From Ruminococcus sp. (GTDB lineage Bacteria > Bacillota > Clostridia > Oscillospirales > Ruminococcaceae): 64,000 nt of DNA. Below the pieces are notes generated by a model, which saw only the letters and a program-made list of their open reading frames with translations, was not told the DNA's origin and made no database searches. Shown here piece by piece: positions 4,661-64,000 of this stretch. Where the stretch lies: positions 16,665 through 80,664 of the forward strand of contig JAIDTI010000023.1 in the NCBI GenBank assembly GCA_029060755.1, given 5' to 3'. The position numbers and the translations under genes are program-made. Each line of letters starts with the position of its first letter. The stretch's first letter is position 1.

Positions 4661-4677
4661 TTACGTTTCCTCCTTCC

Positions 4678-5812: not shown

Positions 5813-5846
5813 AAAAAAAGCTCGTGAAAAATTACTTTTTCCGAGC
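5813..5846 (-). terminator. Intrinsic terminator-like hairpin in the rpsJ leader (candidate attenuator)
   Basis: Minus strand: GCTCG GAAAAA GTAA TTTTTC A CGAGC followed by T7, about 80 nt upstream of rpsJ ATG and about 200 nt downstream of the promoter. Confidence 0.7.
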
Positions 5847-6055
5847 AAACGCAGACATTCAGACACAAATTGACAGTATAAAAGCTTGCACAACAAACTA
5901 TACACTCAAAACACAAACTGTGTCCAATATCTCTGTCGCCCGATTTACGGACATACTCCACAGAAATTCCCTGCCACACCGACAGCAACCTTCTGCTTCT
6001 TCGCATATCTTAACAGCAGGTATATTCAAATATCATACCCGACTCAACATAAACT

Positions 6056-6084
6056 ATTATACCACGTATATAATAATAAGTCAA
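6056..6084 (-). promoter_or_regulatory. Sigma-A-like promoter of the S10 operon
   Basis: TTGACT, 17-nt spacer, TATAAT on minus strand. Confidence 0.75.
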
Positions 6085-6160
6085 CATTTTCTTGTGTAGA
6101 AATATGCAGACTTTTTGCCTGGTTTTTTGTGAATTTCAGACAAAAAGTCCGTATTTCTTA

Positions 6161-7867: not shown

Positions 7868-7872
7868 TCCTT

Positions 7873-8346: not shown

Positions 8347-8359
8347 AATAATTCTCCTT

Positions 8360-34958: not shown

Positions 34959-36002
34959 TTATTCAGGCATACCCATTTCAGCAAGTTTCATTTGAATTGC
35001 AATAGCATCAGCAGCAGTAAGACCGTTTCCGTCCAAATCTGCGTTAAATTCGCCTTGTGCTGTAAGTCCGTATTTGTCCTTGTTTCCGATAGCCTGAACT
35101 ATTGCTGTTGCATCAGCTATATTCATATCGCCGTCCTCGTTTGCATCACCGTCTGTACTGTTGAGAACATCAATATTACCACTGCCGTCTGAAATAGTGT
35201 TTGCTGAAGCCTGAAACTCAAATGGTATACCTATACCTAATGTATTTGCAATATCTGCGGCAACCTGAAGATGTTCGTCAAAGTCTATATCATAGTTCGG
35301 TACAAGGTCGCATCTATATAAATCATCATATCTTCCATTAGCTTCACTGACTAACTTACCACGTTCAAGAGTGAAATCAAGATTTTTTTCTTTGATATAT
35401 TCAGTAAGGTCAGCAATCTGTTTTTCAGAAATGCCATACACATAATAAGTCGGCGATTCAAATGTTATACGTCCGTGTCCGCTTGCCATAACTCTGCCTC
35501 CGCCGTAAACATCAAAACCAGTTACATTTACTATTTCAGCTATCTGGCTGTACATTTCACGAGCATAAGAAAAATCTTCAGGAATAATAGCCTCATATTC
35601 ATAAATTCCATCTTTGCTGTAAGCTGTTTCAATGTAACATTCCAGTCCATACAAACTGAAAATTTCAGGGATTCTTTCATCAAAAGAATTTTTATCTTCA
35701 TCACAAGTTTTTAAACTAAGTGAAGCTGGAAAAGTGTTCACGTTTATATAATCATAATGTGTAATGCCGTCATCTCCAACAATTTTTTTCACCAATACAC
35801 TATGAGGACCTCTATAATATGCAGAAATAAACGAATCAACAGCATACTTTTTGTAGTCAGCATCCATATGATAAAGTTCCTCATAACCTGCAAACTCATC
35901 TGAGTTTGCATCAAACGGACGAGCGATAGCCCCTGCGTTTACAGCCGTCAAGCTTGCACACAAAACAGCAAGTGACATGATTGTGCTTATAAGTTTTTTC
36001 AT
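34959..36002 (-). CDS. Secreted protein with C-terminal type I dockerin, unknown N-terminal region
   Basis: Signal peptide; dockerin GDANEDGDMNIADATAIVQAIGNKDKYGLTAQGEFNADLDGNGLTAADAIAIQMKLAEM. Confidence 0.85.
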   Translation of the reverse strand: MKKLISTIMSLAVLCASLTAVNAGAIARPFDANSDEFAGYEELYHMDADYKKYAVDSFISAYYRGPHSVLVKKIVGDDGITHYDYINVNTFPASLSLKTCDEDKNSFDERIPEIFSLYGLECYIETAYSKDGIYEYEAIIPEDFSYAREMYSQIAEIVNVTGFDVYGGGRVMASGHGRITFESPTYYVYGISEKQIADLTEYIKEKNLDFTLERGKLVSEANGRYDDLYRCDLVPNYDIDFDEHLQVAADIANTLGIGIPFEFQASANTISDGSGNIDVLNSTDGDANEDGDMNIADATAIVQAIGNKDKYGLTAQGEFNADLDGNGLTAADAIAIQMKLAEMGMPE

Positions 36003-36004
36003 AA

Positions 36005-37159
36005 TTAATCCCCCTCGAATAACTTGCTCATTTTGTAAAATCTAATCAAATTAAGATTAACTCTTACTCCATAACTCTCATCTTCTTTACCAGTACTTGT
36101 GTGTACTCCAACAGTAGAACGAGTGTTTATTGTGTAATTGTTTCCAGGATTAGTATAACTGGAATCGAAATATGTCATACCTCCGCTTTTTCCAGCAATA
36201 GATTTTGCTTTTATATGATAACGATAAGCGTATTCATGTGAAGGTATTTCAGAACTTATTACTCCTGTAGATTGGTAGCGTGTGCGTATGTCGTTGACTG
36301 TAGTATATCCAACTGAAGTAAGACTTCCTTTTTCTGCATTTATAAATTCATCTGTCATAATGCCAAAATTTACGCTGTAATTTCCTACATTTACTTTTTT
36401 GCCATTTTTATCTTTAAAATCTCCGACTCTTATAAGAGCATAGTCATAATTTACATCACAATCGTTTCCCTTAATATATTTTGATGGAATATGAAGAAAC
36501 TCAGCAGAAGCAGTGTATGATACATTTTCATCAACATACACCTTAACTTTAACATTTTTTGCAAATTCATTTGAAGAAGCATTATATATACAATGTGCAG
36601 CAGTTGCTATAGTGTTATTTGAAACTATAAAACCGCTTCCTAATCCGATACTTGAAGAAATTTCAACACAGGCGACATTTTCTTTATCCTTAGTATTAAA
36701 TTCAGATGCATATGCAACAGGACTGTCAAACGAATCTGTTGTATTAGCAACCGGAATCGTATAAGTCTTATAGCTTTTCAGATTTGAATCTGAACAATCA
36801 TGTCTGCGATACTGTACAGCAGTATTTACAGGGAGAGTATAGCATTCTTTTCTTACTGTTGTGCCTGCTTTTGTAGGAGCATTAGGATTAGCTTCAAGAT
36901 ACTGAAGCATATATTGGTCTGTTTGGTCAATGATACCGTCTTCATTTATATCCATAGCAGTAAAATTCTTAGCATTTGTAGCATATGCTCCACCCAAATA
37001 TTGATTTATGAAAGTAGCATCAGCTATATTGACATAACCGTCTCCATTTGAATCGCCTAAAAGAATATTGGTTGTTGCGGCATAACTTGCAGACGGAATC
37101 ATGCAGATAGCTGAGGTTGTAACTGCTACGACACCTGCAAGTAGTTTTTTCAACTTCAT
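36005..37159 (-). CDS. Secreted trypsin-like (S1B/glutamyl endopeptidase-like) serine protease with N-terminal dockerin
   Basis: LLGDSNGDGYVNIADATFINQYLGG...DINEDGIIDQTDQYMLQYLEAN dockerin; TIATAAHC, NYDYALIRV and AGKSGGMTYF as probable His/Asp/Ser. Confidence 0.85.
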   Translation of the reverse strand: MKLKKLLAGVVAVTTSAICMIPSASYAATTNILLGDSNGDGYVNIADATFINQYLGGAYATNAKNFTAMDINEDGIIDQTDQYMLQYLEANPNAPTKAGTTVRKECYTLPVNTAVQYRRHDCSDSNLKSYKTYTIPVANTTDSFDSPVAYASEFNTKDKENVACVEISSSIGLGSGFIVSNNTIATAAHCIYNASSNEFAKNVKVKVYVDENVSYTASAEFLHIPSKYIKGNDCDVNYDYALIRVGDFKDKNGKKVNVGNYSVNFGIMTDEFINAEKGSLTSVGYTTVNDIRTRYQSTGVISSEIPSHEYAYRYHIKAKSIAGKSGGMTYFDSSYTNPGNNYTINTRSTVGVHTSTGKEDESYGVRVNLNLIRFYKMSKLFEGD

Positions 37160-38022: not shown

Positions 38023-38424
38023 ATGTACGAATCAAAAGTTAAATACTACTATGGAACAGGAAGAAGAAAGCACTCCGTTGCAAGAGTAAGAATCTATCCC
38101 GGTTCAGGCAATGTTACAATCAACGGCAGAGGAATTGATGATTATTTCGGTCTTGAAACTCTCAAACTTATTGCACGTCAGCCACTTACACTTACAGATA
38201 CTCTTGATAAGTTTGATGTTGTATGTACAGTTAAAGGCGGTGGTGTAACAGGTCAGGCTGGTGCTATCCGTCACGGTCTTACACGTGCGCTTCTCAGATA
38301 TGACGACAGTCTCCGTAAAGTTCTTAAAAAGGCTGGCTTCATTACACGTGACCCACGAATGAAGGAAAGAAAGAAATACGGTCTCAAGGCTGCTCGTCGT
38401 GCTCCTCAGTTCTCAAAGAGATAA
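38023..38424 (+). CDS. rpsI: Ribosomal protein S9
   Basis: [28 protein letters not shown]...[14 protein letters not shown]. Confidence 0.98.
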
Positions 38425-38547: not shown

Positions 38548-39636
38548 TTACTCTGCAAGGCAAAGCTCGATCTGCTTGGCGGTTCGGACTTTTGTTTTGA
38601 GCAGAACATCGGGATAGATGTCAGCGGTGATACTTAAATCACAATGCCCTAAATGCTCAGATACTATTTTCAGGCCGATACCGCTGTTCAGGAGCATAGT
38701 AGCGTTGCAGTGACGAAGCTGATGTAAGGTCATATCCTCAAATTCAGTTCCTTTGGTAAAACGTTTGAGCGAGTGGTAGACCGAATTGCGGTCACGATAG
38801 TTTCCGAGAGCCGAAACGAATACCATTTCGGGGTGAGCGAAATCATCACCGAGGATGGTTTTCAGTTTTTCGATGTAGGCTTTCTGTTCAAGCAGAATCT
38901 TGCTTAACTCCTGTCCCATACCAATGATACGGATACTGCTTTCGGTCTTAGGGTCGATCAGTTCATGTTTTCCGCCGATGTAGGTCAGCGTGTGGTTGAC
39001 CGAGATTGTGTTGTTCTCGAAGTCGATGTCATTCCATACAAGTCCGAGACACTTGCCCGAACGCATACTCGTGTAAAGCAGTACCTTTATGATACGCTTG
39101 AAGTCCTCATCGAAAGCCTTGTTCTTCCTACTTTTTTTACGCTTGGGTAAAATTACGTTGTGGCATGGAGATTCACGAATGAAGCCCTGCTCTGGTCCAT
39201 GGTGAAAAATGCTTTGCACTATAACATAGAGCTTTCTCACGGTTGTGGGATTGAGGTCAAAGGACTGCATGATCTGTGTCAGCTTCGGTGTCGTAATATC
39301 CTTGACTTTCATATTATCAAGAACAGGCTCGATGTGGTTCTTGTATTGCCCCTTGTAAGTGTAGACAGTACTTTCTTTCAGCTCATGCGGTGCATAGTTT
39401 GTGAAATACCAATCGGCAAGCTCCGAGAAACGCATATTCTCATTGAGCTGAGAGTAACCCTTGCAGTGTCTTTCGAACTCAAAAGCATATTTCTGAGCAA
39501 GCTTTTCGGCTTTCTTAGGTGTCACTCCATCAGGCGGAGTGAATGTTGTGGATTTCATCAGCTTTTTGCCGTTCATATCTGTTCCGACAAAAACTCTGAT
39601 ATGGAATGTATTTCCATGTTTTGTTATGTTTGCCAA
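38548..39636 (-). CDS. Tyrosine recombinase/integrase (appears to have a small internal deletion)
   Basis: LYTSMRSGKCLGLVWNDID, HQLRHCNATMLLNSG, LGHCDLSITADIYPDV; the segment before the first catalytic Arg looks short. Confidence 0.88.
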   Translation of the reverse strand: MANITKHGNTFHIRVFVGTDMNGKKLMKSTTFTPPDGVTPKKAEKLAQKYAFEFERHCKGYSQLNENMRFSELADWYFTNYAPHELKESTVYTYKGQYKNHIEPVLDNMKVKDITTPKLTQIMQSFDLNPTTVRKLYVIVQSIFHHGPEQGFIRESPCHNVILPKRKKSRKNKAFDEDFKRIIKVLLYTSMRSGKCLGLVWNDIDFENNTISVNHTLTYIGGKHELIDPKTESSIRIIGMGQELSKILLEQKAYIEKLKTILGDDFAHPEMVFVSALGNYRDRNSVYHSLKRFTKGTEFEDMTLHQLRHCNATMLLNSGIGLKIVSEHLGHCDLSITADIYPDVLLKTKVRTAKQIELCLAE

Positions 39637-39744: not shown

Positions 39745-40894
39745 TTATTCTAATTCTAAACCTCTTGATTTGTTGAATTTAAACCGGGCAAAATCGTCCG
39801 ACAGTCCACAGGCAGAAATAAACGCCAAAGCTTTGCGGAGCTTCTCACGGTCGGAGATTTGTCTTGTCTGCTCGTTCAGCTTTTCACGGGAGAAATAACG
39901 CTTTTCTTCCTCTTTTTTCTTGTAGACCGCAAGCTCCGAAGTCGTGGCATCGTACTTAACTTTTAGAGCATTGTATTTCTGCATGGCTTCATCACGCTCT
40001 TTGCGGAGTTTCTTAGTCTGCTTTTGAGAAGCAACTTGCTTTTTGGCGAGATCGGATATGTTCTCCCAATCCTCTTGCGATACCGTGACCTTGCCGCCGA
40101 AAACAGTCTTACCTGTTGTAACGCTGTTACTTTCGATCAGCTTTGTTTTTTTTGGAAGCCTTATCCAATTCTTGCTGAACTTCATCAAGCTGTGCTGTTT
40201 TCTGTTTGATTTCCTCACTCAGCTTTTTAGCCTTATAATGAGAAACTGTTCTATGCTTCTCATGTATATCAAAGTCAACCCATTTGATACCATGTTCAAG
40301 CATTATCTGTCCGAGGAATTCTTTTTCATGTTCGAGCCAGTCAATAGTAATTATATGCCCATTGCCTGTTCCTGCAAAACTTTGTTGCCGTAACGCTCCA
40401 GTGAGGGAATTGCGTACACGCATACCATTCTTTCGGGCTTCATCGGTGACAGGTACAAAGTCAAGGTGCAAGTGCGGTGTTTCCTCGTCCATGTGTATCA
40501 CAGCGTTAAAGACTTTCAAATGGGGATTTCTCTCCTCAAAGGAACGGGCGAACTCCTCCAGTATTGCAGACGCTTCTTTTGATAGGTCAGAATCCACATC
40601 GGTATCTTTCATATTGCCTATCTGAAACAGCACCTCATGAAATTCTTTCTCCTGTCTGCTGTGGCGGATATACTCCCTGTAATTTTGAATCCGTCTGTCT
40701 TTTCGTGTCTGTCGGTTATTGTATTCCTGCAAAGCCTCGTCGAACAAATCATGGTAGAGCCGTTTCAAAGAGCGTTGGCAGATAATGATGTCATCGTTGA
40801 TTCTGTCCTGCTTGACATTTTTCGTAACGATCGAACGATTGTTATGGTTGAGATCGCTCCTATCAATTCGGGTACTCAAACTTCTTTCTATCAT
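39745..40894 (-). pseudogene. MobV/Pre-family relaxase, frameshifted at an A8 tract (ORFs 40127-40894 and 39745-40218)
   Basis: HMDEETPHLHLDFVPV relaxase motif; ...QQELDKASKKNKADRK stops, while removing one A from T8 at 40146-40153 gives ...KASKKTKLIESNSVTTGKTVFGGKVTVSQEDWENI. Confidence 0.8.
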
Positions 40895-41500: not shown

Positions 41501-42451
41501 TCATCTGTAAATTTGTGGGTTGATGATGACCTCGGTCACCGTTTTGTTGTTTGCTCCCTTGCTTGTGGTACGAAGAATATAGCTATATTCTTCGAGCATA
41601 TCTACCGTTTCACTAAAGTCCAGGGCATTCTTGAAAAGCGTACAGCGGCACAGCTTGTACAAGTCGTTCTGCCGTATCTGCTGAATACGCTTTGAACGTA
41701 TCTTGTTCAGTACCCTTTCAGCCTTGACCGTGGCAATATCCACATCGCCTAAGCTGTAAGCGTAGATAACCTGATTTCGATAGTATTCTGCAATTTCAAT
41801 AGAATTGCAGAACGTGTCGAGATTTACACGGATTTCAACAGGATTCCCGCCATTCAGTGCGCATTTCACGAAATGAATGATACCGCATAACCGCAGGATA
41901 AGTCCGTGATACTTACCGCCCCAGTCCTTGCAGAAAGCCATATCAGTGAGAAGTCTCGGTTCGATATAGTTGTTATAATACTGCACAAACTCATTATATG
42001 CCTTGCCATCAAAATGAATATACAGCTCATTTTCATCGTGATAAGTGAACTTATCATTCAACAGCTTGTAGATTAGCTTTTTGTAATTCTCAGTGACTTC
42101 TTCGAGAACAGGCTGCGTATCATACCGCTGTGAGCCGATATTGCTTACGGTAAAACAATACACCAGACGAGCAATCAAACCGCTGCCATGGAAAGCCGTG
42201 TTGCTTATCATACTGTCGAATACATAGGGCTGACAGGCAAGGCAAATGCTCATATACGGCTTTTTGAGGACTATACTCGCTCTGGTCGCTCTGGCGCTTA
42301 TATATGAAATGACGGGAGACTTCTTGAAACTTGACTCTGCTACGGTGAGTGCATCGAGTACCAGCGGCGCAGTGTAGTCGCATTTTGCCGACATTCGGTA
42401 CACTCCCGAAAAGCAATAGCTCACAGCAGAAAGAATAGCCGTTCCTGCCAT
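41501..42451 (-). pseudogene. DUF3987-like (primase/helicase-associated) protein, probably internally deleted
   Basis: VAESSFKKSPVI and GSGLIARLVYCF resemble conserved DUF3987 blocks, but the intervening region is very short; no clear intact N-terminus. Confidence 0.5.
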
Positions 42452-42912
42452 TGCAGGAGCAGTTGGGACAGAGGGCGAGGTATGCTGTCATTCTGCCGAG
42501 TGTATTGAAGTACAGAAACAACAAAAAGAAAAAAATATCAAGGAGAATACAAAAGAGTATTCCGATATAAAGTGATATTATGATTCCTTTGTCCGCAGAT
42601 ATAAAGGTTATCTTGATGTGGCAGAAATCGACCACTTCCACCCAGATGATTATGATATTTTTATGCAGGCAAAGAAAGAGCGTATGGATAACATGACATC
42701 ACTCAAAAAGAAACTGATTCGTAACGACTTACCGTCGGCTGAGCTATATGAGCTTTCAAAACAGTACAAGGCGGAAATCAAGGCACTTGCCGAACAGATT
42801 TTAGAGAAGTATGGATTTGATATTACAGCGGTAGCTAAGATCAAGAAGCCCTATAAAACAAAAAAGCAATCTTGAATTTGGTGGGTTCAAAATAGAATTA
42901 GCTCATATGTAA

Positions 42913-42942
42913 TTGACAAGACAATGGATATTGTGCTATAAT
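42913..42942 (+). promoter_or_regulatory. Sigma-A-like promoter of the Wadjet operon
   Basis: TTGACA, 18-nt spacer, TATAAT; RBS GGAGG before ATG 42997. Confidence 0.7.
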
Positions 42943-42996
42943 TATAATGGTATATTGTATATTTCAACAAGATAAGAAGATACGGAGGTGCAGCCA

Positions 42997-44418
42997 ATGA
43001 ATATTTTCAGCATAACGGGAAGTGACTTTTTTAAGGCACTTACAGGCAAATATCAGAACATATTCATTGACTGTCTTGAGATAATTTATAACTCATATCG
43101 AACTGAGCTGTCATATGGTATAGATAAGGAAGTGCTTGTTTTACAGCTTACGGACTATTTTGACCGAAACAGTTCGGCGGATATACAATTTGAGGACGGT
43201 GCAGAGGTTTTCAAGGATTCTCGTGCCAAAGCAAACGAATTTCTCAGAAAGCTAAGAGCATATGGGTGGATAGAATATGAATTTGGCAACGATCAGCGTG
43301 CGAAAATCGTTATGCCTAACCATTCTGTCACAATTATGCAGGCTTTGATGGCAATTATCGATGTAAAGGAAATGGAATATCAAAGCGAAGTCTCTGCAAT
43401 TTATTCGCTTCTTATCAATGAAAATCTATATGACAGACCATATCCGCAGATTATCAAGCCAGTGTATGACAGAACGATTGCACTTTTCACGGAGTTGAAA
43501 AAACTTAATACAGGTATCAGAAAATATATTGATGAATTGACAGAGGGGAAGACACCTGAAGAACTTATGGAACATTTCTTCTCATACAATGAGAATATCG
43601 GCTCAAAGGCGTATCACCGCATGAAAACCAATGATAATGTTTCGAGATTCCGCAACACGATCGTAAGCCGTCTCCGTGATATATTGAGTGATGAAGCGAT
43701 TATGGAAAGAGCAGTCATCGGTTATCAGAATATTGAGGGAGAAAACGACAAAACCGAAGCAAGCGATAAGGTCATAGAAATTATCACAAATGTGATAGGA
43801 TATTTTGATTCCTATGACGATATTGAAAAAGAAATAGAACACAAGCATTCAAAATATCTGAGAAGTGCGGTCAATAGGGCAAAACTTGCGTTTTTGAATA
43901 CCAACAATATAGAGGGAAAAATTTCTACAATCCTGAGATGTCTTGCAAATGCATTTGAAACAGAGGAAGAATATGGTATCTATGATGATGTGCCTGATGA
44001 TTATTGCAGGATATTCAATATGTTTCCGCAGAGCTTTCTCGGTGGAGAGTCGCTAAAAACAATCGGCATATCCAAAAGGAGCGTTGATGTAGAGGAAATA
44101 TTCACACCTCATACCATTTCGGAAGAAGAAATACTCCAAAGACGAATTGCTCTGAAAGAAAAGAATGAACAACGCTTTTCAAGAAAGAATATCAATGCAT
44201 TTGTATGTATTTTGCTAAAAGACAGAGAAAAAATCAATGCATCAGAAATCGAAGTGCATACAAAGCGTGATATGATACGGTTGATTTTTATTAGTATTTA
44301 TGGTAGGGATAAACGCTCCGAATATATTGTTCTGCCAAAAGAAAATATCATATGCAATAATGGCTTCAAATTCAAAGATTTTACTCTGAAAAGGAGGGCA
44401 AAACAGCATGAATCATGA
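42997..44418 (+). CDS. jetA: Wadjet anti-plasmid system protein JetA (MksF/kleisin-like)
   Basis: MNIFSITGSDFFKALTGKYQNIFIDCLEIIYNSYR...; first gene of a JetABCD-type operon with coupled genes. Confidence 0.82.
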   Translation: MNIFSITGSDFFKALTGKYQNIFIDCLEIIYNSYRTELSYGIDKEVLVLQLTDYFDRNSSADIQFEDGAEVFKDSRAKANEFLRKLRAYGWIEYEFGNDQRAKIVMPNHSVTIMQALMAIIDVKEMEYQSEVSAIYSLLINENLYDRPYPQIIKPVYDRTIALFTELKKLNTGIRKYIDELTEGKTPEELMEHFFSYNENIGSKAYHRMKTNDNVSRFRNTIVSRLRDILSDEAIMERAVIGYQNIEGENDKTEASDKVIEIITNVIGYFDSYDDIEKEIEHKHSKYLRSAVNRAKLAFLNTNNIEGKISTILRCLANAFETEEEYGIYDDVPDDYCRIFNMFPQSFLGGESLKTIGISKRSVDVEEIFTPHTISEEEILQRRIALKEKNEQRFSRKNINAFVCILLKDREKINASEIEVHTKRDMIRLIFISIYGRDKRSEYIVLPKENIICNNGFKFKDFTLKRRAKQHES

Positions 44419-45040
44419 AACACGTCTTGATAAATTTCTCGGCAGTGTGTCAAAGGATAAATTCAGGAGCAATGCCAATAAGCTCCTGAATGAATGCTTT
44501 ATCCTAAAGAGCTGTACTGACACGAAAAACTGCTACTATTTCATACTGAAAGAAAAAGAACTGTTTATCGATTATTTTGACCTGCTCGGCTATGATATTT
44601 CGATAAATGAAGAATACGGCGTGATCTCCCTTAACAATACCTATGGCACAGGACGTATCCGTCTGAAGCTGCTTGACAGTATGATACTTCTTATCATACG
44701 GCTTATTTTTATAGAGGAAAAGAAAAAGCTGTCTCAGACAGAAAATGTGATCGTATATGTTGATGAGTTATATGACAGATACCGCAGTCTGAGAAATGAA
44801 CGGCTGAAAAAACAAGATATGCGCTCAGCACTCGGTTTATTGAAAAAATACCATATCATCAATAATCTTGACGCTGATATGGGAAATCCCGATACACGGT
44901 TACATATCTATCCCTCAGTTATACTTGCTTTTGATGGAACAGAGCTGAATACAGTCTATGAAGAAACGAAAGATAAACTTAATAAATATGTGAACGGCGG
45001 TGAAACAGAAGGCTATGCAGACGAAGAAGATACTGACTAA
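44408..45040 (+). CDS. jetB: Wadjet protein JetB (DUF4194/MksE-like)
   Basis: 210 aa; overlaps jetA and jetC; position and size typical of JetB. Confidence 0.8.
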   Translation: MNHETRLDKFLGSVSKDKFRSNANKLLNECFILKSCTDTKNCYYFILKEKELFIDYFDLLGYDISINEEYGVISLNNTYGTGRIRLKLLDSMILLIIRLIFIEEKKKLSQTENVIVYVDELYDRYRSLRNERLKKQDMRSALGLLKKYHIINNLDADMGNPDTRLHIYPSVILAFDGTELNTVYEETKDKLNKYVNGGETEGYADEEDTD

Positions 45041-48000
45041 ACTTAGACTTGTCAATTGGCATTATTTCAGCAATGAAACGATACACCTGAAAAATACCAA
45101 TTTGTTTTCCGGCGACAATGGCGCAGGCAAGTCCACAATTCTTGATGCGATTCAGCTCATACTCACCACTAACAGCCGAAAATTCAATCTCGCTGTGGGG
45201 GCAGAAAGCAAGCGCAGTCTGAAAACCTATGTCAGAGGTAAAACAGGTGAGGAGGGCAGTGAGTATATCAGAAAAGGCGCAGTTATCTCCTATATTGCGC
45301 TTGAAGTATATGAGGAAAGCAAACAGCGTTATTTCGTGATTGGTGGAAAGTTTGATTCACCCGATCTTGAAAGTGAACCAAAGAGAAAATGGTTCTGTGA
45401 GGAGGGTACACTTGACCAGCTATCCTTTATTATAGATAATAAGCCTGCAAAAGACGAACAGTTCAGAAACAACGGTAAAAGGGTAGTGTTTATTCACCAG
45501 ACTTCACTTGCAAAGGATAGATTCAAGTTGCGTCTCGGTCATTTACAGGATAATTTTTTTGAGCTTCTTACAAAGTCAATTGCATTCAAACCTATGAAAG
45601 ATGTCAAGAGCTTTGTTTCGCAGTTTATTCTGCCTGAGAAAAATATTGATATTGATGCACTTCGTGAGAATATCCGCAATCTGAAAGAAATGCAGTTCCT
45701 TGTGGAAGAAGTAAAGAAACAGGTAAATGATCTTGAAGTGATTCAGAAAAAATATGACGATATTCTGCATTTTGATGAGCAGATACTTGTGATAGATATT
45801 CTGATAAAGATCGCAGAAGCGGAAGCGAAAAAAGCAAATATTGCCGATATGACAAGTCAGATTAGTCTTGCGAAACAACGCTTGACACAGGACAAAAAAG
45901 CTCGTAATGATCTCAATGCTGACATACAAAGACTGAACGAGAGATATATCAATGTTCAGACTTCGTTAAATTCAGGGGAATCTGCTTTGTTGATCGGCTC
46001 TATCAAATCCGATATAAAGGATAAGGAAAAAGATAAAAGCACCCTGTCTAACCAGCTTCATCAACTGAAAGAACAGTTAAAAAGAATCAGGACAGCCCTG
46101 CGGTATATTCACAAGTATAGCACTGTGACCGACAGCGAAATTTCTGCTTTGGAACAAATCGAAATGGATATTCAGTGCAGAAACAGTATCGTTATTGAAA
46201 TCGAACGTGCATTTGCAGAAGCAGAGAGCAGTATTCAAAATCAATTAGCAGATACAAAAGCTGAACTGACTGTTCTGAATAAAGCTATTGAACAGCTCTC
46301 CAAAGAAATCAAAGACCTTGAACAAAATAAGCTCACCTATGACAGGAATGTCACGATGCTGAAAGAAGCGATACAGCGTGAATTTTCTGCAAGGGGTATC
46401 GTTTCTGAGGTACATATCCTTGCCGACCTTCTTGAAATATCCGACAGCAAGTGGCAGAATGCGGTCGAGGGCTACCTTAATTCACAGAGATTCTATATCA
46501 TTGTAGAGCCTGCCTATTATGACATTGCTGCTGAGGTTTACGACAAATACAAGTTAAAGATACATACGGCAGCTATTGTCAATACAGCCAAACTGAATAC
46601 AGATGTTACGCCTGATACAACGAGCCTTGCAAGCGTTGTCACCAGTGAAAACCGCTATGCGTATGCTTATGTTGGCTATCTTCTTGACAGAGTGACAATG
46701 TGTGAAAGCGTTTCTGAGCTGAAAGAACACCGTATCGCTATTACACAGGGCTGTATGCTTTATCAGGGCAATGCACTCAGAAAGATTGCCCCTGAAATCT
46801 ACAATATGCCATATATTGGCAAATACGCTTTGCAGCAGCAACTGAAAATCAAGAAAGCGGAGTATGAAGATAAATCAGCCAAACAATCGGAACTTAAAAC
46901 GCAGGAATCAAATTATAATAAGATACTTTCGGTTATCAGACAGTGCAATTTTGAAATATTGAAGCCTGTTATCACTGCTCCAATTGAAATGCAGAAAATC
47001 ACAGAGGAGATTCGTCTATTAAACCAGAAGCTGAAAGAAGCTGAAAATGATCCTACCTATTTACAGCTGCAAATGGAAGCTGATGAACTGAAAGGACAGC
47101 TCGACAGTAAAAATAAGGAGCTTGACAATATCAAGCAGTCTATTACAAGAAATCAATATACAATAGAACGTCTTTCGACTGATATTGGACAACTTGAAAC
47201 AGAGGGCGGCAGCATTGAATCGCAGATAAGTAATATGAGCAAAGGAAATGAGACGGCATTGCATGATGCACAACATAAGTTTGAGGAGCATAAAAAAACG
47301 AAGTCCGCAGACACGATTTTTAACAATTATCAGCCGAGGAGAGAAGCTCTCAAAAATCAGAAAGAAAAAGCCAATAACGAGCTGCACGTTATGCAATCGA
47401 AGTACAAGGACGGTGAGCTTGGTACGGGTATAGGTATGATGTCGGCGTATTCCGAGGAATACAGTGCTTTAGCAAAGCATGATCTTATTAGATACGAGGA
47501 GCAGTTGAGAGTTATCAAGGATAACTGTGAAACAGAGTTCAGAGAGAGCTTTCTTGCAAAAATACGTGAAAATATTGAAAATGCCATTTCTCTGTTCAAA
47601 GAGCTGAATAAGACCCTCAAACCGATTTATTATGGTAATGATTCCTATCGTTTTGACTATTTGGCAGATAAGCGTAAAAAACGGCTGTATGATATGATAA
47701 TGTCGGACTTTAACCTTGGTGGTTTCAACCTCTTTTCCACACAGTTTGATGAAGAATATCACGACGAAATGAATGAGCTGTTTTCAAAGCTGACAGCTTC
47801 GGATGAAAACGGTGATGATGTACTGCGTGAATATACTGATTACCGCAGCTATCTTGATTATGATATTGAGATTATTTCAAAGGACGGAAAATCGCAAAAG
47901 TTCTCTAAAATCTACAGAGAGAAAAGCGGCGGTGAAACACAGACACCGTACTATGTGGCAATTGCAGCTTCTTTTGCTCAACTTTACATCACAGGCGAAA

Positions 48001-48221
48001 CGATAAGAGTTATCATGCTTGACGAAGCCTTTGATAAAATGGACGAGGAACGTATTGAGAGTATGCTCACATTCTTTAAGTCGCAGAATTTCCAGATAAT
48101 TCTTGCTGTACCTACGTCAAGATTGGAGCTGATTGGTGAACAGGCGGACAATATTGTTATGATCTATACTGACAGCGGACATAACAGTTTTGCAGAGGAA
48201 TTTTCCTATGATGAATTATAA
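45015..48221 (+). CDS. jetC: Wadjet protein JetC (SMC/MukB-like ATPase)
   Basis: Walker A FSGDNGAGKSTILDAIQLIL; long coiled coil; signature KSGGETQTPYYVAIA; Walker B VIMLDEAFDKMDEERIE. Confidence 0.93.
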   Translation: MQTKKILTKLRLVNWHYFSNETIHLKNTNLFSGDNGAGKSTILDAIQLILTTNSRKFNLAVGAESKRSLKTYVRGKTGEEGSEYIRKGAVISYIALEVYEESKQRYFVIGGKFDSPDLESEPKRKWFCEEGTLDQLSFIIDNKPAKDEQFRNNGKRVVFIHQTSLAKDRFKLRLGHLQDNFFELLTKSIAFKPMKDVKSFVSQFILPEKNIDIDALRENIRNLKEMQFLVEEVKKQVNDLEVIQKKYDDILHFDEQILVIDILIKIAEAEAKKANIADMTSQISLAKQRLTQDKKARNDLNADIQRLNERYINVQTSLNSGESALLIGSIKSDIKDKEKDKSTLSNQLHQLKEQLKRIRTALRYIHKYSTVTDSEISALEQIEMDIQCRNSIVIEIERAFAEAESSIQNQLADTKAELTVLNKAIEQLSKEIKDLEQNKLTYDRNVTMLKEAIQREFSARGIVSEVHILADLLEISDSKWQNAVEGYLNSQRFYIIVEPAYYDIAAEVYDKYKLKIHTAAIVNTAKLNTDVTPDTTSLASVVTSENRYAYAYVGYLLDRVTMCESVSELKEHRIAITQGCMLYQGNALRKIAPEIYNMPYIGKYALQQQLKIKKAEYEDKSAKQSELKTQESNYNKILSVIRQCNFEILKPVITAPIEMQKITEEIRLLNQKLKEAENDPTYLQLQMEADELKGQLDSKNKELDNIKQSITRNQYTIERLSTDIGQLETEGGSIESQISNMSKGNETALHDAQHKFEEHKKTKSADTIFNNYQPRREALKNQKEKANNELHVMQSKYKDGELGTGIGMMSAYSEEYSALAKHDLIRYEEQLRVIKDNCETEFRESFLAKIRENIENAISLFKELNKTLKPIYYGNDSYRFDYLADKRKKRLYDMIMSDFNLGGFNLFSTQFDEEYHDEMNELFSKLTASDENGDDVLREYTDYRSYLDYDIEIISKDGKSQKFSKIYREKSGGETQTPYYVAIAASFAQLYITGETIRVIMLDEAFDKMDEERIESMLTFFKSQNFQIILAVPTSRLELIGEQADNIVMIYTDSGHNSFAEEFSYDEL

Positions 48222-49380
48222 AAAGCAGCTCCTGAACTGCCTGCTTGATAAATACGAGCGAAGCAAGAGCTTTACAGGCGATAATAAAAGAGGTCAGAGC
48301 TTTTCGGTCAAGCTGATAAAGCTCTTTCCGAAATATGGTGATGAAGCGGAATATGATTTCTATATCAGTATCAATGAAGATACCCAGGAGCTTGAACGCT
48401 GTGAATATATTTCTCTGTCAAAAAAGAAAAATGGAGTCATTGACAGCGTTACATTAAATACGCATAAGCTGAACGAGATATATGAATTCATTTCAAGAAT
48501 ACCAAAGTCAGATACAAATGAACGGTTGCTTAACCTGCTTACAATGTACACAAATAAAAACGAGGTTCTTACAAAATACTGTCAATCGCAAATTGAAAGA
48601 ATACAAAGTAATAAAAAAGCAGAATACTTTGAAAGCGATTTTGAAGAATATGAAAACATACTGAAAGCCGTATCAGAAATATTTGACATTCCCGAAGAAA
48701 TATATATCAGAGATTTCTCAGTCAAAGTGTTTGGAGATTCTAAAGTTTTTGAGAGAATCAAACATAAGGTCACAAGACTTCTGTTTCAGTATGGGGATTT
48801 TCCGCAGGAAGAAACCATACTTGAGGAGCTGAACATCGTTAAAAATCCCGGTCATGTTTATATCAAAGGCTGCGGAATTATCACGATAAGCAATCAGATA
48901 ATTGACCTGTCTGTTCTGGACGGTGATATTGCGATTTCGTCTGTCCTTTTGAAAAGCATAGATAAAATTGAGATTACGGGCAGCAGAGTGATAACCATTG
49001 AAAATTTGACAACATTCAATCATTTTTCACAGCCTGATACTTTTGCACTCTATCTTGGCGGCTACCATAATTCTCACCGAAGAAATTTTATAAGAAAAAT
49101 ATACGAGCAGAATCCGCAAATTTCCTACTACCATTATGGTGATATTGACGCAGGAGGATTCTATATCCTGCTCCATCTGCGAGAGAAAACAGGTATTCGC
49201 TTTGTTCCATATCAAATGGATACAGATACATTACGACAACATTCAGCCTATACAAAACCGTTGACGGAGCATGACAGAAAACGGCTGAAAAATCTTATGG
49301 ACAGTGAATTTTCGGATACAGTAACGTATATGCTTGAACATAATTGCAAGTTAGAGCAGGAAGCATTGGATATTGAATAA
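48208..49380 (+). CDS. jetD: Wadjet protein JetD (DUF2220/Toprim-like nuclease subunit)
   Basis: C-terminal YYHYGDIDAGGFYILLHLREKTGIRFVPYQMDTDTL; overlaps the jetC 3' end. Confidence 0.85.
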   Translation: MMNYKKQLLNCLLDKYERSKSFTGDNKRGQSFSVKLIKLFPKYGDEAEYDFYISINEDTQELERCEYISLSKKKNGVIDSVTLNTHKLNEIYEFISRIPKSDTNERLLNLLTMYTNKNEVLTKYCQSQIERIQSNKKAEYFESDFEEYENILKAVSEIFDIPEEIYIRDFSVKVFGDSKVFERIKHKVTRLLFQYGDFPQEETILEELNIVKNPGHVYIKGCGIITISNQIIDLSVLDGDIAISSVLLKSIDKIEITGSRVITIENLTTFNHFSQPDTFALYLGGYHNSHRRNFIRKIYEQNPQISYYHYGDIDAGGFYILLHLREKTGIRFVPYQMDTDTLRQHSAYTKPLTEHDRKRLKNLMDSEFSDTVTYMLEHNCKLEQEALDIE

Positions 49381-49932: not shown

Positions 49933-51381
49933 TTAGATAACCGAAAATTCATCAGCAAGTATTTCAGGTGAAGAATAAATCAAATCATATTCTTTCAAGA
50001 TTGGTCTGTCTGAAATTTCAGCATAGACCGGTTTTTTTCCTCTTGTGAATACCCAGCAATGACTGATTGGCATATAGAGTACATTTTCAAGTGGCTTATT
50101 ACAGCGTATACTGACTGACTTAGCTGTTTCAATATCATTGCTTCCCATATAGATATAGGTATCACAGTTTGAAATAATAGTCTTGTCTGTTCTGGCACTG
50201 TTTTTCATAAGCTGTGATTCAGATTGCAGAATAAGTGAAACTGATATATTTCTTGAACGGATTGTGGAAATAACTGCATCAAGATTATAGATATTTGTTG
50301 TAGCACCGTAATCATCAAGGAAAAATCTTACAGGAACAGGCAAACGTCCGTTTTCACATAAATCAGCATATTTAACCAAAGCACTCATTGCTTGAGAAAA
50401 GAACAGGTTTACAAGTCCGTCCATTGACCTGTCATAATCGCTTTGCTGAACAAATAAAGCAGTTTTTTTCTGTGCAATTTTTTTGAAGTCACAATCATTT
50501 CCCAACATCATCTTTTCAATTTCTTCTGTGTTGTAGTTGGAAAATTTAGACACAAGTGTACTGCGGATTGTATCATAAGTTTTGTCAGGAGCTTGGTCAA
50601 CACTCTTGAACTGCTCATATGCCCAGCTATTTGGATTCATTTCATGAAGTTTCTGAAAGCGTTTGAAAAGTTCAGATGCTCTACTGTTTCTGCCTTTGTT
50701 AATTATTTCCTCTTTGCGTTCACCTTCACGGACAAGCTGTAATATACTACTGAAATTATACGGTTTATAGCCTGTTTCATACATATATCCAATAATGGCA
50801 CAAATGAAAATCAATGTCATTCTGTCCCAGAACGGGTCAAAATTATAGCTGTTTACTACTTTATCATAAACAAGTGAATTTGCAATTTTCATAATGTCCT
50901 GTGTGGATTGAATTTCCGTCAACGGATTCCAGCGCATAGAATTTTCAGGATTCTGGAAATCGATTTTAAGCACATCATATCCCTTACTATGCAGATAATT
51001 TGCATATTTGCGATAAAGTGTACCTTTCGGGTCGGATATTACATAACTTCCTTTTGCAGTTACAAGATTAGGCTCTACAAACCCCGTACTTTTGCCACAA
51101 CCGCTTGCTCCGACAACTAACACATTGTTATTCAGTCGTGTGATTCGGTCATCAAGTGAACGGGAAACACCTTTTGCAAAAATAAACTCACCATCTCTGA
51201 AATCCTGTTCATAATCCTCATTATAGCCGTTGTCAGCTTCATAAGATTCATCGGTTTCATCAGAATAATCATAAATATCAAATTTTTCAAAAAAGTCGTC
51301 CGGAAGTGGAACTCCTTCAAGTAATGCTTCATATTCAAGTCTTGCCTTATAATCATCAAAAGTTTCGTCATTTGAATACAT
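49933..51381 (-). CDS. Soluble VirD4/TraG-like (T4CP-family) ATPase
   Basis: NNNVLVVGASGCGKSTGFVEPNLVTAKGSYVISDPKGTLYRKYANYLHSKGYDVLKIDF; VRFFLDDYGATTNIYNLDAVISTIRSRNISVSLILQSESQL; no N-terminal TM segment. Confidence 0.85.
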   Translation of the reverse strand: MYSNDETFDDYKARLEYEALLEGVPLPDDFFEKFDIYDYSDETDESYEADNGYNEDYEQDFRDGEFIFAKGVSRSLDDRITRLNNNVLVVGASGCGKSTGFVEPNLVTAKGSYVISDPKGTLYRKYANYLHSKGYDVLKIDFQNPENSMRWNPLTEIQSTQDIMKIANSLVYDKVVNSYNFDPFWDRMTLIFICAIIGYMYETGYKPYNFSSILQLVREGERKEEIINKGRNSRASELFKRFQKLHEMNPNSWAYEQFKSVDQAPDKTYDTIRSTLVSKFSNYNTEEIEKMMLGNDCDFKKIAQKKTALFVQQSDYDRSMDGLVNLFFSQAMSALVKYADLCENGRLPVPVRFFLDDYGATTNIYNLDAVISTIRSRNISVSLILQSESQLMKNSARTDKTIISNCDTYIYMGSNDIETAKSVSIRCNKPLENVLYMPISHCWVFTRGKKPVYAEISDRPILKEYDLIYSSPEILADEFSVI

Positions 51382-51394
51382 ATTAAAACCCTCC

Positions 51395-51976
51395 TTAATA
51401 AATGTTTCTTATTTTATCGCATATTCCGAAAGCAACAGCTTCATCAGCGTCCATAAAATTGTCATACGATGTTGCACTGTCTATTTCCTCAATGCTTTTG
51501 CCTGTAGCTTCTGAAAGTATACCATTGATTATGGCCTTTATTTCAAGTATGGACTGTGCCTTTTTTTCTATAGTTGTAGCAGAGCCTCCGAAACCGTCCA
51601 TAATAAGTGGCTCATGAATCATTACTTTTGAGTGCGGAAGAATAAATCTTCTGCCTTTCTGACCGCCTGCAAGAAGTACCGCCGCCATACTTGCCGCAAT
51701 TCCTGTACATATAATGTTAAGCGTGTGCGGATATGCCTGTATAACGTCATACATCACAAGTCCTGCATTGACTTCACCGCCTTTGCAGTTGATATAAAGT
51801 GTGACTTCCTTTTCTTTTTCTGCCATATACTTCATAACAGAAACAAACTGCACAGCAACATCAGCGGTAATGGTTTCATTGAGAAATAACGTTCCCTCTT
51901 TTGCATGAACAGCATCAAGATTATATTCTTTACTGCTGTTTGCACTCTCAATATAAATTGTCTTTGATAAACTCAT
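51395..51976 (-). CDS. ClpP-family serine protease (accessory paralogue)
   Basis: VTLYINCKGGEVNAGLVMYDVIQ...CTGIAASMAAVLLAGG...HSKVMIHEPL: oxyanion, Ser and His motifs. Confidence 0.88.
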   Translation of the reverse strand: MSLSKTIYIESANSSKEYNLDAVHAKEGTLFLNETITADVAVQFVSVMKYMAEKEKEVTLYINCKGGEVNAGLVMYDVIQAYPHTLNIICTGIAASMAAVLLAGGQKGRRFILPHSKVMIHEPLIMDGFGGSATTIEKKAQSILEIKAIINGILSEATGKSIEEIDSATSYDNFMDADEAVAFGICDKIRNIY

Positions 51977-52182: not shown

Positions 52183-53280
52183 TTATTCTTTATGACTATC
52201 TTTTCTTTCAAGTTCTTTTTGTTTTATTTCTGATATTAATTTATAATCAGCATCAGTTGTTGGAAAGTAGTGATTTCTTGACCAGATAAAACGGCAAAGG
52301 TCATTAAGGCTTAAATTCAGTGCTTTGGCGATTGTTATAACATTTTCTTTGTAACGTAAAAAGCTTATTGCTCCCGTGTAAATTTCACCGTTCTGTTTTT
52401 TCAGATTTCTTATTCCTGTTATTTTATTGCTATTAATATTGGCTCTGAACGCAAATTCCTCATGTGTTGTTTTGATATTCTCATCAAATATTTTTTTGTA
52501 TAATAAATCATTAAATTCCTGATGTATGTCTTTCGGTACTTCCAATCCTTCGGATTTTTTTAACTGCATCTCCTCACAAAATTCTTGTTCTTCTTTTTTA
52601 TACTGCAAATATATACTGTCAACCTCTGACTTTATTTTCTGTTTGAATAAGTTGCTGAAACAATTTATATGTTCTCCAATTATGGAGTTTTCATTAATAT
52701 GCCAATCAGGAAAACTATATCCATTAAGCTCTTTTGCCTTTTTTATTATTTGGATAACATTTCTATACTGTTCCTGATTCCTGTATTCAACCAGAATGAT
52801 ATTTATTTCCGGATTTCTGCGAATATAACATTTTATTCTTCCAATAGCAAAATCTTTTGCCATTTTATAAGGGTAACCCGATGCTCCTGTTCCCAGAATT
52901 GGAAATACAACAGAAGTTAATTTATTTTTTTTAATAAGTTCTAAAGCATTGGTATAACACGTTCCCAAACTATAATAACGGTTATATCTTGGCAACGGCA
53001 TTTCACGTCCAATAGAGAATTGAAATCCAGGTATGGGAACGTGTATAAGATACTTATATTGTTCTTTCAAACCAAAACTGTCTGTTATACCAGCTTCACC
53101 GTTTTTAAGTATGCCCATATTTCCTATATTTTTTCTTGCTTTAAGAAGTTTTGTTTCTCCAGCTTTTTTATAAATCTGTTCGTCAAGAGTACCATATATT
53201 TTCGGGTAATTACTGGCAGGAAAGACAAGTGCGTCAGCGGAACATTCAAAAATATCTCCGGTTATTATTTCAAGTCCCAT
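52183..53280 (-). CDS. Macrodomain protein with C-terminal HTH-like region
   Basis: MGLEIITGDIFECSADALVFPASN...VVFPILGTGASGYPYKMAKDFAI macrodomain; C-terminal EEFAFRANINSNKITGIRN...ENVITIAKALNLSLNDLCRF. Confidence 0.8.
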   Translation of the reverse strand: MGLEIITGDIFECSADALVFPASNYPKIYGTLDEQIYKKAGETKLLKARKNIGNMGILKNGEAGITDSFGLKEQYKYLIHVPIPGFQFSIGREMPLPRYNRYYSLGTCYTNALELIKKNKLTSVVFPILGTGASGYPYKMAKDFAIGRIKCYIRRNPEINIILVEYRNQEQYRNVIQIIKKAKELNGYSFPDWHINENSIIGEHINCFSNLFKQKIKSEVDSIYLQYKKEEQEFCEEMQLKKSEGLEVPKDIHQEFNDLLYKKIFDENIKTTHEEFAFRANINSNKITGIRNLKKQNGEIYTGAISFLRYKENVITIAKALNLSLNDLCRFIWSRNHYFPTTDADYKLISEIKQKELERKDSHKE

Positions 53281-53388
53281 ATTATCAACTCTCTTTCTAT
53301 TTATACCAAATTTTATAAAAAGTGCAATGTTATTAAACAACTATGCAGAATTATTCTGTATGGTTTTTCTTATTTGTCGGAATATGAG

Positions 53389-61000: not shown

Positions 61001-62929
61001 TTACTGAGCAGTGTCAGGGAGTTTGCTGATTATGTTTGCTTCGAGTTTCTGGAGTGCAAGGGCATCAAGACCTGTTACACCGTCGCCGACGTTACAACAG
61101 TCTGCATTTGCGAGACCCTGTTCTGAAAGAGCGTACTTGTCTTTGTTTCCGAGATGCTGTATAATTGCTGTAGCATCAGCAATATTTACTTCATCATCGC
61201 AGTTTGCATCGCCGAGAAGCGTAACTTTAATATCACTTCCGCCTGTTGTGGATTCGGAATTTTCGTCAAGTACAGCAAATTTTCTTTCATATTTTTCAGC
61301 GTATTTCTGAGCAGTTGAGTCTTCTTTGCCGTAAATTGTTGCTTTGGACGATATTGTGTATTTGTCCGCATAGATTTCACATTTGGGATTTGCAATCACT
61401 GCTTTCTCAAGATTTGCACAATCTTGAAAAGCATATTTTCCTATGCTTGTAACGTTATCAGGAATTGTGATTTCTGTAAGTGAAGTACAGCCATAGAATG
61501 CACTTTCTCCTATTGTCTTTACACTGCTTCCGATTTCTACAGTTTCAAGATTTGTACAGTTACGGAACACACGATAGCCAATACTTGTTATGCCGTTGCC
61601 TGTAACTACTGATTCAAGACCTGAACAGCCATGAAAAGCCTCATTACCGAGTGTTTTTACACTGTTCGGAATTGTAATTTTTGTTAAAGAATAACAGTTT
61701 CTGAAAGTGTATCCTCCGATTTCCTTTACGCTCTCTCCGATTTTCAATGTTTCAAGACATTTACAGTTATCAAATGCATAATTTCCGATATTTGTAACTC
61801 CGTCTCCTATTACCGCTGATGTAAGAACGGAACAATCCTGAAAAGCATATGTTCCTATGCTTGTAACGGTATTAGGAATTTTGATTTCTGAAAGAGAAGT
61901 ACAGCCATAGAATGCACTTTCTCCTATTGTCTTTACACTGCTTCCGATTTCTACAGTTTCAAGACTTGTACAGTTACGGAACACACGATAGCCAATACTT
62001 GTTATGCCGTTGCCTGTAACTACTGATTCAAGACCTGAACAGCCATGAAAAGCCTCATTACCGAGTGTTTTTACACTGTTCGGAATTGTAATTTTTGTTA
62101 AAGAATAACAGTTTCTGAAAGTGTATCCTCCGATTTCCTTTACGCTCTCTCCGATTTTCAATGTTTCAAGACATTTACAGTTATCAAATGCATAATTTCC
62201 GATACTTGTAACTCCGTCTCCTATTACAGCTGATGCAAGAACGGAACAATCCTGAAAAGCATATGTTCCTATGCTTGTAACGTTATCAGGAATTGTGATT
62301 TCTGAAAGGGCAGTACAGCCATAGAATGCACTTTCTCCTATTGTTTTTACACTGCTTCCGATTTCTACAGTTTCAAGACTTGTACAGTTACGGAATACAC
62401 GATAGTCAATGCTTGTCAGTCCGTTTCCTGTATCTACTGATGAAACTGAAGTACAGCCATGAAAAGCCTCATTTCCAATCGTTTCAACATTATCAGGAAT
62501 TGCAACTTCTGTCAGGGAAGAACAGTTTCTGAAAGCATATTCTCCGATTTCCTTGACACCCTTTCCGATTGTCAGCTTTTCAAGACTCTTACAGCCATCA
62601 AATGCATAATTTCCGATACTTGTTACGCTGTCAGGAATTGTTATTGATTCCAGATACGAACAGCCATTAAATGCACTTTTTTCAATGCCTGTAACAGGAA
62701 GTCCCTCAATCTCAGCAGGAATTTCAACATTTGATACAGACTGACTGCTTTTATAAATTGTTACATAATTAACGTAAGCTCTGTATGTAAGACTTTCATA
62801 AGTACCCTCTGTATAGTCAGCCGCACTTGATGTAAATGTATTGTATGCAACTTCAACTGCATTCACCGGTACAGCACCGGCAACCACACAGCAAGCCATA
62901 ATACCAGCGATAATCTTCTTCATATTCAT
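61001..62929 (-). CDS. Secreted BspA-type leucine-rich-repeat protein with C-terminal dockerin
   Basis: Repeats SLTEITIPDNVTSIGTYAFQDC...; dockerin GDANCDDEVNIADATAIIQHLGNKDKYALSEQGLANADCCNVGDGVTGLDALALQKLEA. Confidence 0.92.
   Translation of the reverse strand: MNMKKIIAGIMACCVVAGAVPVNAVEVAYNTFTSSAADYTEGTYESLTYRAYVNYVTIYKSSQSVSNVEIPAEIEGLPVTGIEKSAFNGCSYLESITIPDSVTSIGNYAFDGCKSLEKLTIGKGVKEIGEYAFRNCSSLTEVAIPDNVETIGNEAFHGCTSVSSVDTGNGLTSIDYRVFRNCTSLETVEIGSSVKTIGESAFYGCTALSEITIPDNVTSIGTYAFQDCSVLASAVIGDGVTSIGNYAFDNCKCLETLKIGESVKEIGGYTFRNCYSLTKITIPNSVKTLGNEAFHGCSGLESVVTGNGITSIGYRVFRNCTSLETVEIGSSVKTIGESAFYGCTSLSEIKIPNTVTSIGTYAFQDCSVLTSAVIGDGVTNIGNYAFDNCKCLETLKIGESVKEIGGYTFRNCYSLTKITIPNSVKTLGNEAFHGCSGLESVVTGNGITSIGYRVFRNCTNLETVEIGSSVKTIGESAFYGCTSLTEITIPDNVTSIGKYAFQDCANLEKAVIANPKCEIYADKYTISSKATIYGKEDSTAQKYAEKYERKFAVLDENSESTTGGSDIKVTLLGDANCDDEVNIADATAIIQHLGNKDKYALSEQGLANADCCNVGDGVTGLDALALQKLEANIISKLPDTAQ
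61490..62520. repeat. 414-bp higher-order tandem repeat inside the LRR gene
   Basis: CCATAGAATGCACTTTCTCCTATTGT recurs at 61491, 61905 and 62319 (spacing 414 bp = 6 x 23 codons). Confidence 0.85.
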
Positions 62930-63068
62930 AATAAAAACCTCCAGTTAAACTTGTTTGTATTATTATAACATTTCACTTTTTTTTAATCAAGTAATCCGTA
63001 AAATTTTTACATTTATTCTATGTTATGTCTAAAAATAATAATTGAGTTTAAAAAAATTATACAAAAAA

Positions 63069-63092
63069 GTGAACCCGATTGCTCAGGTTCAC
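63069..63092 (-). terminator. Probable intrinsic terminator
   Basis: GTGAACC...GGTTCAC with adjacent A/T runs. Confidence 0.5.
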
Positions 63093-63105
63093 AGTTTTTA
63101 TGATA

Positions 63106-64000
63106 TTATTTAGAAGTGTCAGGAAGTTTGCTGATTTGTTTTGCTTCGAGTTTCTGGAGTGCAAGAGCATCAAGACCTGTTACACCGTCGCCGACGTTAC
63201 AGCAGTCCGCATTTGCGAGACCCTGTTCAGAAAGAGCGTACTTGTCTTTATTGCCGAGATGCTGTACAATTGCTGTTGCATCAGCAATATTTACTTCGCC
63301 GTCCTCATTTGCATCACCAAGCAATAATTTGCCTGTATGTGCGGTAGTAGTAACAGTTGTTGCAGTTGTTTTAGCGGCTGTTGTGATAATAGTTGTGTTT
63401 GTTGCAGGTGATTTTGTTGCGGTTGTTGTGGTAGTAGTTGTGTTTGTTGCAGGTGATTTTGTTGTGGTAGTGGTTGTTGTAGTGGTTATTAGTATTGTTG
63501 TGATATTTGTGGTAGTGGTTTCTTTAGCATATTCACCACACTCATATATAATTGAATCGTCATAGCCGTATATAGTTGCTGTATCACTTATTGTATGTAA
63601 ATCATTATTATAAAGTTCAGGATTTAATATTTTTATTGATGTCAAACTGTCACAACTGGAAAATGCCCAGTATCCGATACTTGTAACGCTTTCGGGAATA
63701 GTTACTGATGTCAGACCTGAACACTTATAAAATGCCTTACCTACAATACTTGTAACGCCTTCAGGAATAACAATATCACCTGAACAGGTTTTACCGTCAA
63801 TAAGTATTCCGTTTCCAACAATAACAAGCGGATTTTCTTTCTGCTTTGATTCAAGCCATGGAGTATGTGCAAATGCTTCACTTCCGATACTTGTAACGCT
63901 TTCGGGAATAGTTACTGATGTCAGATGCGAACACATATAAAATGCATCATTTCCGATACTTGTAACGCTTTCGGGAATCGTTACTGATGTCAGACCTGAA
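63106..64000 (-). CDS. BspA-type LRR protein with Thr-rich linker and C-terminal dockerin, N-terminus beyond the window
   Basis: Reading frame stays open to 64000 (SGLTSVTIPESVTSIGNDAFYMCSHL...); TTTTTTTTTKSPATNTTTTTTT linker; dockerin as in the neighbouring gene. Confidence 0.88.
   Translation of the reverse strand, partial: SGLTSVTIPESVTSIGNDAFYMCSHLTSVTIPESVTSIGSEAFAHTPWLESKQKENPLVIVGNGILIDGKTCSGDIVIPEGVTSIVGKAFYKCSGLTSVTIPESVTSIGYWAFSSCDSLTSIKILNPELYNNDLHTISDTATIYGYDDSIIYECGEYAKETTTTNITTILITTTTTTTTTKSPATNTTTTTTTATKSPATNTTIITTAAKTTATTVTTTAHTGKLLLGDANEDGEVNIADATAIVQHLGNKDKYALSEQGLANADCCNVGDGVTGLDALALQKLEAKQISKLPDTSK

What the first reader, a model, noticed from the sequence alone, without database searches (positions are those of the whole stretch)
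42913..49380. Intact Wadjet (JetABCD) operon carried by an integrative mobilizable element
Four overlapping genes (jetA, jetB, SMC-like jetC, jetD) follow a good promoter. JetC has Walker A, signature and Walker B motifs and JetD has the GDIDAGGF block. Wadjet is established as an SMC-family system that cleaves circular plasmid DNA. Its carriage on an element that would excise as a circle and be mobilised by a MobV relaxase creates a self-targeting problem, unless the element avoids it by size, timing or loss of mobility.
Basis: partly seen in the sequence, partly recalled or inferred. Interest (0 to 1): 0.7.

Follow-up and report, generated by a model that had tools for sequence, protein, structure and literature searches.

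The report
Wadjet operon in decayed mobile element
A complete plasmid-destroying Wadjet (SMC-type) gene set sits in the dead remains of a small mobile element in a Ruminococcus-like gut bacterium; the Wadjet genes are an ordinary, well-conserved type I system, but a near-complete 13-kb sister element carrying the same genes raises a testable question about how such an element avoids cutting itself.

Summary
The operon is real and intact: promoter 42913-42942, jetA 42997-44418, jetB 44408-45040, jetC 45015-48221, jetD 48208-49380. It is type I Wadjet by Pfam and PADLOC. All four genes are under purifying selection (dN/dS 0.08-0.22 against five relatives), and catalytic motifs are kept. It is not core: 10 of 125 genus genomes have jetD.

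The carrier descends from an integrative mobilizable element (IME) at the rpsI 3' end. The window copy is dead: integrase lost 17 residues, MobV is frameshifted, the CHC2 primase gene is gone, DUF3987 is truncated, the right end is degraded, and no attR remains in the window or genome. So the proposed self-targeting problem does not arise here.

It does arise in a relative: Ruminococcus sp. Phil15 carries the operon in a 13.4-kb element between perfect 23-bp repeats at tRNA-Glu, with intact MobV and DUF3987, far below the ~50-100 kb that escapes Wadjet; its integrase is frameshifted. Sister elements carry restriction systems, McrBC and other defence genes in the same slot. Five of six close operon copies lie outside a complete element. 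New: this element family's defence slot and Wadjet's place in it. Not new: Wadjet itself.

The parts
42913..42942 (+). jet promoter, TTGACA-18-TATAAT with extended -10 TG
   Evidence: 12/12 consensus match; conserved in six contexts
42997..44418 (+). jetA, MukF/kleisin-like subunit (ATG after GGAGG)
   Evidence: Pfam JetA 2.9e-99; PADLOC JetA1 2.6e-131
44408..45040 (+). jetB, MukE-like KITE subunit
   Evidence: Pfam DUF4194 1.2e-26; PADLOC JetB1 5.8e-58
45015..48221 (+). jetC, SMC-like ATPase, about 1068 aa
   Evidence: PADLOC JetC1 4.8e-301; weaker match to solved JetC 8dk1_C, 1.1e-9
48208..49380 (+). jetD, Toprim nuclease, about 390 aa
   Evidence: PADLOC JetD1 2.8e-118; Pfam JetD_C 1.4e-23; family profile matches Topo VI-A Toprim and, weakly, MksG
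38023..38424 (+). rpsI, integration target gene
   Evidence: conserved in relatives
38412..38424 (+). att core CTCAAAGAGATAA (attL)
   Evidence: only exact copy in the genome; intact sister element L143 has two copies 12,660 bp apart
38548..39636 (-). tyrosine integrase with 17-residue deletion and Glu-to-Lys in the conserved Arg-I motif
   Evidence: Pfam Phage_integrase; alignment A3
39745..40894 (-). MobV relaxase, split by a frameshift at an A8 run near 40147
   Evidence: Mob_Pre 3.4e-15; one open frame in L020, L031, L086
41140..41397 (-). HTH (excisionase-like) gene; neighbouring CHC2 primase gene missing
   Evidence: HTH_17; CHC2 gene present in L020 and L143, no match in the window
41501..42455 (-). 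DUF3987 gene, truncated and internally deleted
   Evidence: only 247-514 and 76-132 of 517 residues remain
42462..42875 (+). C-terminal remnant of a 339-aa element gene next to the cargo slot
   Evidence: residues 219-335 of 339 at 62% identity
49416..49830 (-). remnant of the conserved right-end gene of the element (called TnpV-like in the report)
   Evidence: two blocks in different frames, 65-72% identity

Best explanation
This is a functional-looking type I Wadjet anti-plasmid system. By analogy with studied type I systems, JetABC loads on DNA and extrudes loops; when two motors meet after fully extruding a small circle, the JetD Toprim nuclease cuts it. The operon, with its own promoter, was carried into the rpsI 3' end as cargo of a MobV-type IME whose variable slot holds defence systems. 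The element has since decayed and cannot excise or be mobilised by itself, while selection has kept the operon. Shown here: operon integrity, type, purifying selection, promoter conservation, element decay, missing attR, intact sister elements with other defence cargo. Inferred: plasmid cleavage, expression, and arrival on the element rather than insertion into its remnant.
For: Family matches; motif conservation; dN/dS 0.08-0.22 with no disruptive stops; promoter. Element origin: the operon starts right after the remnant of the 339-aa gene and ends before the right-end gene, the position of cargo in L020, L143, L148 and L150; G014 keeps the same left junction and an att core to the right; Phil15 keeps the backbone around the same operon. 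Decay.
Against: No activity was tested. The genome is a draft in 93 contigs, and the MobV frameshift lies in a homopolymer, so that single lesion could be an assembly error; the integrase, DUF3987, CHC2 and right-end lesions are hard to explain that way. In Phil15 and G149 the operon has different immediate upstream DNA, so it may also move by other routes.
Confidence: 0.84

Rival explanations
1. The element is still a working IME: the MobV frameshift is an assembly error, the integrase tolerates its deletion, an unseen attR exists, and Wadjet self-targeting is avoided by timing or repression.
For: The catalytic integrase residues remain; the MobV lesion is in a homopolymer.
Against: Several separate lesions, loss of the CHC2 gene, and no attR or native post-rpsI sequence in the window or genome.
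Confidence: 0.06
2. Housekeeping MksBEF-type condensin rather than a defence system.
For: Shared SMC architecture.
Against: JetD present with Toprim residues; best matches are JetA1-D1; present in 10 of 125 genus genomes.
Confidence: 0.02
3. The operon inserted independently into an already dead element remnant and was never element cargo.
For: In L087 and L085 the operon sits without element genes; its flanks differ between copies.
Against: It lies in the family's cargo slot in the window, in G014 (same left junction) and in Phil15 inside a near-complete element.
Confidence: 0.12

Closest known systems
Type I Wadjet (JetABCD), including P. aeruginosa PA14 JetABCD and C. glutamicum MksBEFG
   Same: Gene set and order, profiles, SMC and Toprim motifs
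   Different: Sequence distant from the solved examples; JetC matches 8dk1 only at 1.1e-9; carried in IME-derived DNA
rpsI-integrated MobV IMEs of streptococci, such as IMESag-rpsI (PMC5090054, PMC5357655)
   Same: Integration at rpsI; MobV relaxases are known in IMEs
   Different: Ruminococcus family has CHC2, DUF3987, a 339-aa gene, a right-end gene and a defence cargo slot; direct homology to the streptococcal elements was not tested
Wadjet on other mobile DNA: Tn7-like transposons (34 JetD, PMC8649781) and plasmids (review PMC10586767)
   Same: Wadjet carried by mobile DNA has been noted
   Different: Here a small IME expected to pass through a circle of about 13 kb in its life cycle

Membership tests
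Type I Wadjet | Adjacent jetA, jetB, jetC, jetD in one operon | tested here: met
Type I Wadjet | Best profile matches are type 1 models for all four subunits | tested here: met
   JetA1, JetB1, JetC1, JetD1 all best and near full length
Type I Wadjet | JetC ATPase motifs (Walker A, signature, Walker B) | tested here: met
   GDNGAGKST, SGGETQ, VIMLDEAFD; invariant or nearly so in five JetC
Type I Wadjet | JetD Toprim acidic residues | tested here: met
   E269, D316, D318 (numbered from window 48196) invariant in 15 homologues; profile aligns to the Topo VI-A Toprim
Type I Wadjet | Cleaves small circular DNA and blocks plasmid establishment | not testable with these tools
   experiment needed
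Integrative mobilizable element (functional) | Intact integrase and both att sites | tested here: not met
   17-residue deletion; one att core only
Integrative mobilizable element (functional) | Intact relaxase | tested here: not met
   MobV split by frameshift, intact in relatives
Integrative mobilizable element (descent) | Shared backbone genes and target site with intact members | tested here: met
   L143: att cores 12,660 bp apart at rpsI with int, MobV, CHC2, HTH, DUF3987, 339-aa gene, cargo, right-end gene
MksBEF housekeeping condensin | No JetD/MksG nuclease; broadly conserved | tested here: not met
   JetD present; 10 of 125 genus genomes

The most novel reading that the evidence does not exclude
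Wadjet is self-immobilising cargo: it protects its small IME from incoming plasmids and rival elements but destroys the excised circle, so carriers lose mobility and the operon ends as a resident chromosomal defence. Five of the six closest operon copies lie outside a complete element, and the sixth has a frameshifted integrase. Type I JetC genes found on plasmids lie only on six large ones (174-628 kb), none typed as mobilizable, whereas a control restriction gene occurs on many small plasmids. Numbers are small, sampling was not matched and hosts are not independent.
Probability: 0.22. Interest if true: 0.72.

Novelty: new member of a known kind. Interest (0 to 1): 0.45.

Why it matters
It shows an IME family of gut Ruminococcus that swaps defence systems in one slot, with Wadjet among them, and gives a concrete pair for testing whether Wadjet can live on a small circularising element: the dead rpsI copy and the near-complete 13.4-kb Phil15 copy. 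If Wadjet cuts its own carrier, carriage of a defence system would limit the carrier's mobility, a trade-off I found no test of in the papers searched.

Tried and rejected
MksBEF housekeeping condensin: rejected. Right att site in the window: exact, near and native-terminator patterns gave none. Empty-site comparison through the downstream yitT gene: its neighbourhood is not shared with rpsI in relatives. Close JetD homologues in viral contigs: none. JetD single-sequence search of solved structures: none; an alignment profile was needed. A fair count of intact versus decayed elements with and without Wadjet was not possible, because the two groups were found by different anchors. A matched control using the restriction enzyme of L020 failed, as it occurs in one genome only.

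Full report
WHAT IS THERE. The window lies in a Ruminococcus-like draft genome (G000, contig C16, 93 contigs; the genus is inferred from named close relatives). Four overlapping + strand genes follow a 12/12 sigma-70-type promoter at 42913-42942. Pfam and PADLOC name them JetA, JetB (DUF4194), JetC and JetD, with the type 1 models best for each and near full length. JetC keeps Walker A, signature and Walker B. JetD keeps the Toprim Glu and Asp residues, invariant in 15 homologues, and a profile of these matches topoisomerase VI-A and, weakly, the MksG structure 8b7f.

IS THE OPERON ALIVE? Pairwise dN/dS of the window copy against five copies at 79-91% JetD identity is 0.08-0.22 in all four genes, without disruptive stops (two relatives end JetA a few residues early). 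The promoter hexamers are conserved in all six contexts even where the neighbouring DNA is unrelated. This indicates selection for function in every setting. Expression and plasmid cleavage are inferred from the family: the review PMC10586767 reports that circles above about 100 kb escape, and PMC12287153 cites a cut-off of 50-100 kb.

THE CARRIER. The genes to the left are an integrase immediately after rpsI, MobV, an HTH gene and DUF3987. A complete sister element in G081 (L143) defines the family. It lies at rpsI between two CTCAAAGAGATAA cores 12,660 bp apart, and the sequence after the second core is like that found after rpsI in several relatives without this element. It holds intact integrase, MobV, CHC2 primase, HTH, DUF3987, a 339-aa gene, cargo and a conserved right-end gene that I call TnpV-like from memory; Pfam gives it no name. 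Against this standard the window copy is broken: the integrase lacks 17 residues and has Lys for the conserved Glu; MobV is frameshifted in an A8 run; the CHC2 gene is absent; DUF3987 keeps only residues 76-132 and 247-514; only the end of the 339-aa gene remains; the right-end gene is split between frames. No second exact att core and no native post-rpsI sequence exist in the window or genome. The DNA then runs into VirD4 and ClpP genes whose relatives lie in another array at rpsI in G024.

SAME OPERON ELSEWHERE. G014 has the operon with the same left junction and, about 300 bp after jetD, an att core followed by a truncated integrase. Ruminococcus sp. Phil15 (L086, L099) has it in a 13.4-kb element at tRNA-Glu between perfect 23-bp repeats, with intact MobV and DUF3987, a different integrase that is frameshifted in a T run, and the right-end gene. 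L087 has rpsI, the operon, then glyS, with no integrase or relaxase. L085 has it at an ordinary chromosomal place, with a decayed element copy bearing McrBC nearby. G136 has it on a short contig with only a remnant of the right-end gene. So five of the six copies lie outside a complete element, counting G014, whose contig ends early.

CARGO SLOT. Between DUF3987 or the 339-aa gene and the right end, sister elements carry type II restriction-modification (G010), methyltransferases with an AAA ATPase (G081), a cytosine methylase with a MutH-type enzyme (G002), a cytosine methylase with a PDC-S06 candidate (G031), McrBC (G060), type IIG enzymes (G086 by profile, G124 by resemblance) and MzaB (G093). 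The right end was seen directly in only some of these contigs. Wadjet is one of these swappable cargoes.

THE SELF-TARGETING QUESTION. For this window it does not arise: the element is dead. For Phil15 it does, since 13.4 kb is well inside the target range. As an indirect check, three different type I JetC queries found six plasmids in PLSDB, 174-628 kb, all typed non-mobilizable. A control type IIG enzyme is found on 343 plasmids, 176 of them typed non-mobilizable, and 21 of 60 sampled are below 100 kb. If plasmids were independent, six of six at 174 kb or more would have probability about 0.001, and six of six at 100 kb or more about 0.075. The first threshold was chosen after seeing the data, the control sample was taken by rank, and hosts are not independent, so this is suggestive only.

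COMPARISON AND VERDICT. Wadjet itself is known, and its presence on mobile DNA has been noted (PMC8649781; PMC10586767). rpsI IMEs and MobV IMEs are known in streptococci (PMC5090054, PMC5357655). I found no paper on Wadjet in an excising IME among those searched, though subscription papers are mostly missing from the library. The finding is a new member of a known kind in an informative setting.

Noticed in passing
window 49933-51976: VirD4-like coupling protein (CD1115 family) and a ClpP-like protease gene side by side on the - strand; the same pair occurs in an array at rpsI in G024 (L017 8693-10644). They look like remains of a second element.
   Followed up: partly
window 52183-53340: Macro-domain (ADP-ribose-binding) protein gene between the element remains and the chromosomal yitT gene.
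   Followed up: no
window 61409-63979: Tandem 69/207-bp repeats, probably leucine-rich-repeat surface protein coding.
   Followed up: no
window 34959-37159: Two adjacent secreted-looking proteins, one with a dockerin and a trypsin-like domain.
   Followed up: no
G000:C28:19922-23099: Another MobV plus DUF3987 element elsewhere in this genome, with a TAG stop inside MobV.
   Followed up: no
L087 (uncultured Clostridia Lapin-023) 770-9230: Wadjet operon alone between rpsI and glyS, with an att remnant but no integrase or relaxase: a likely domesticated copy.
   Followed up: yes
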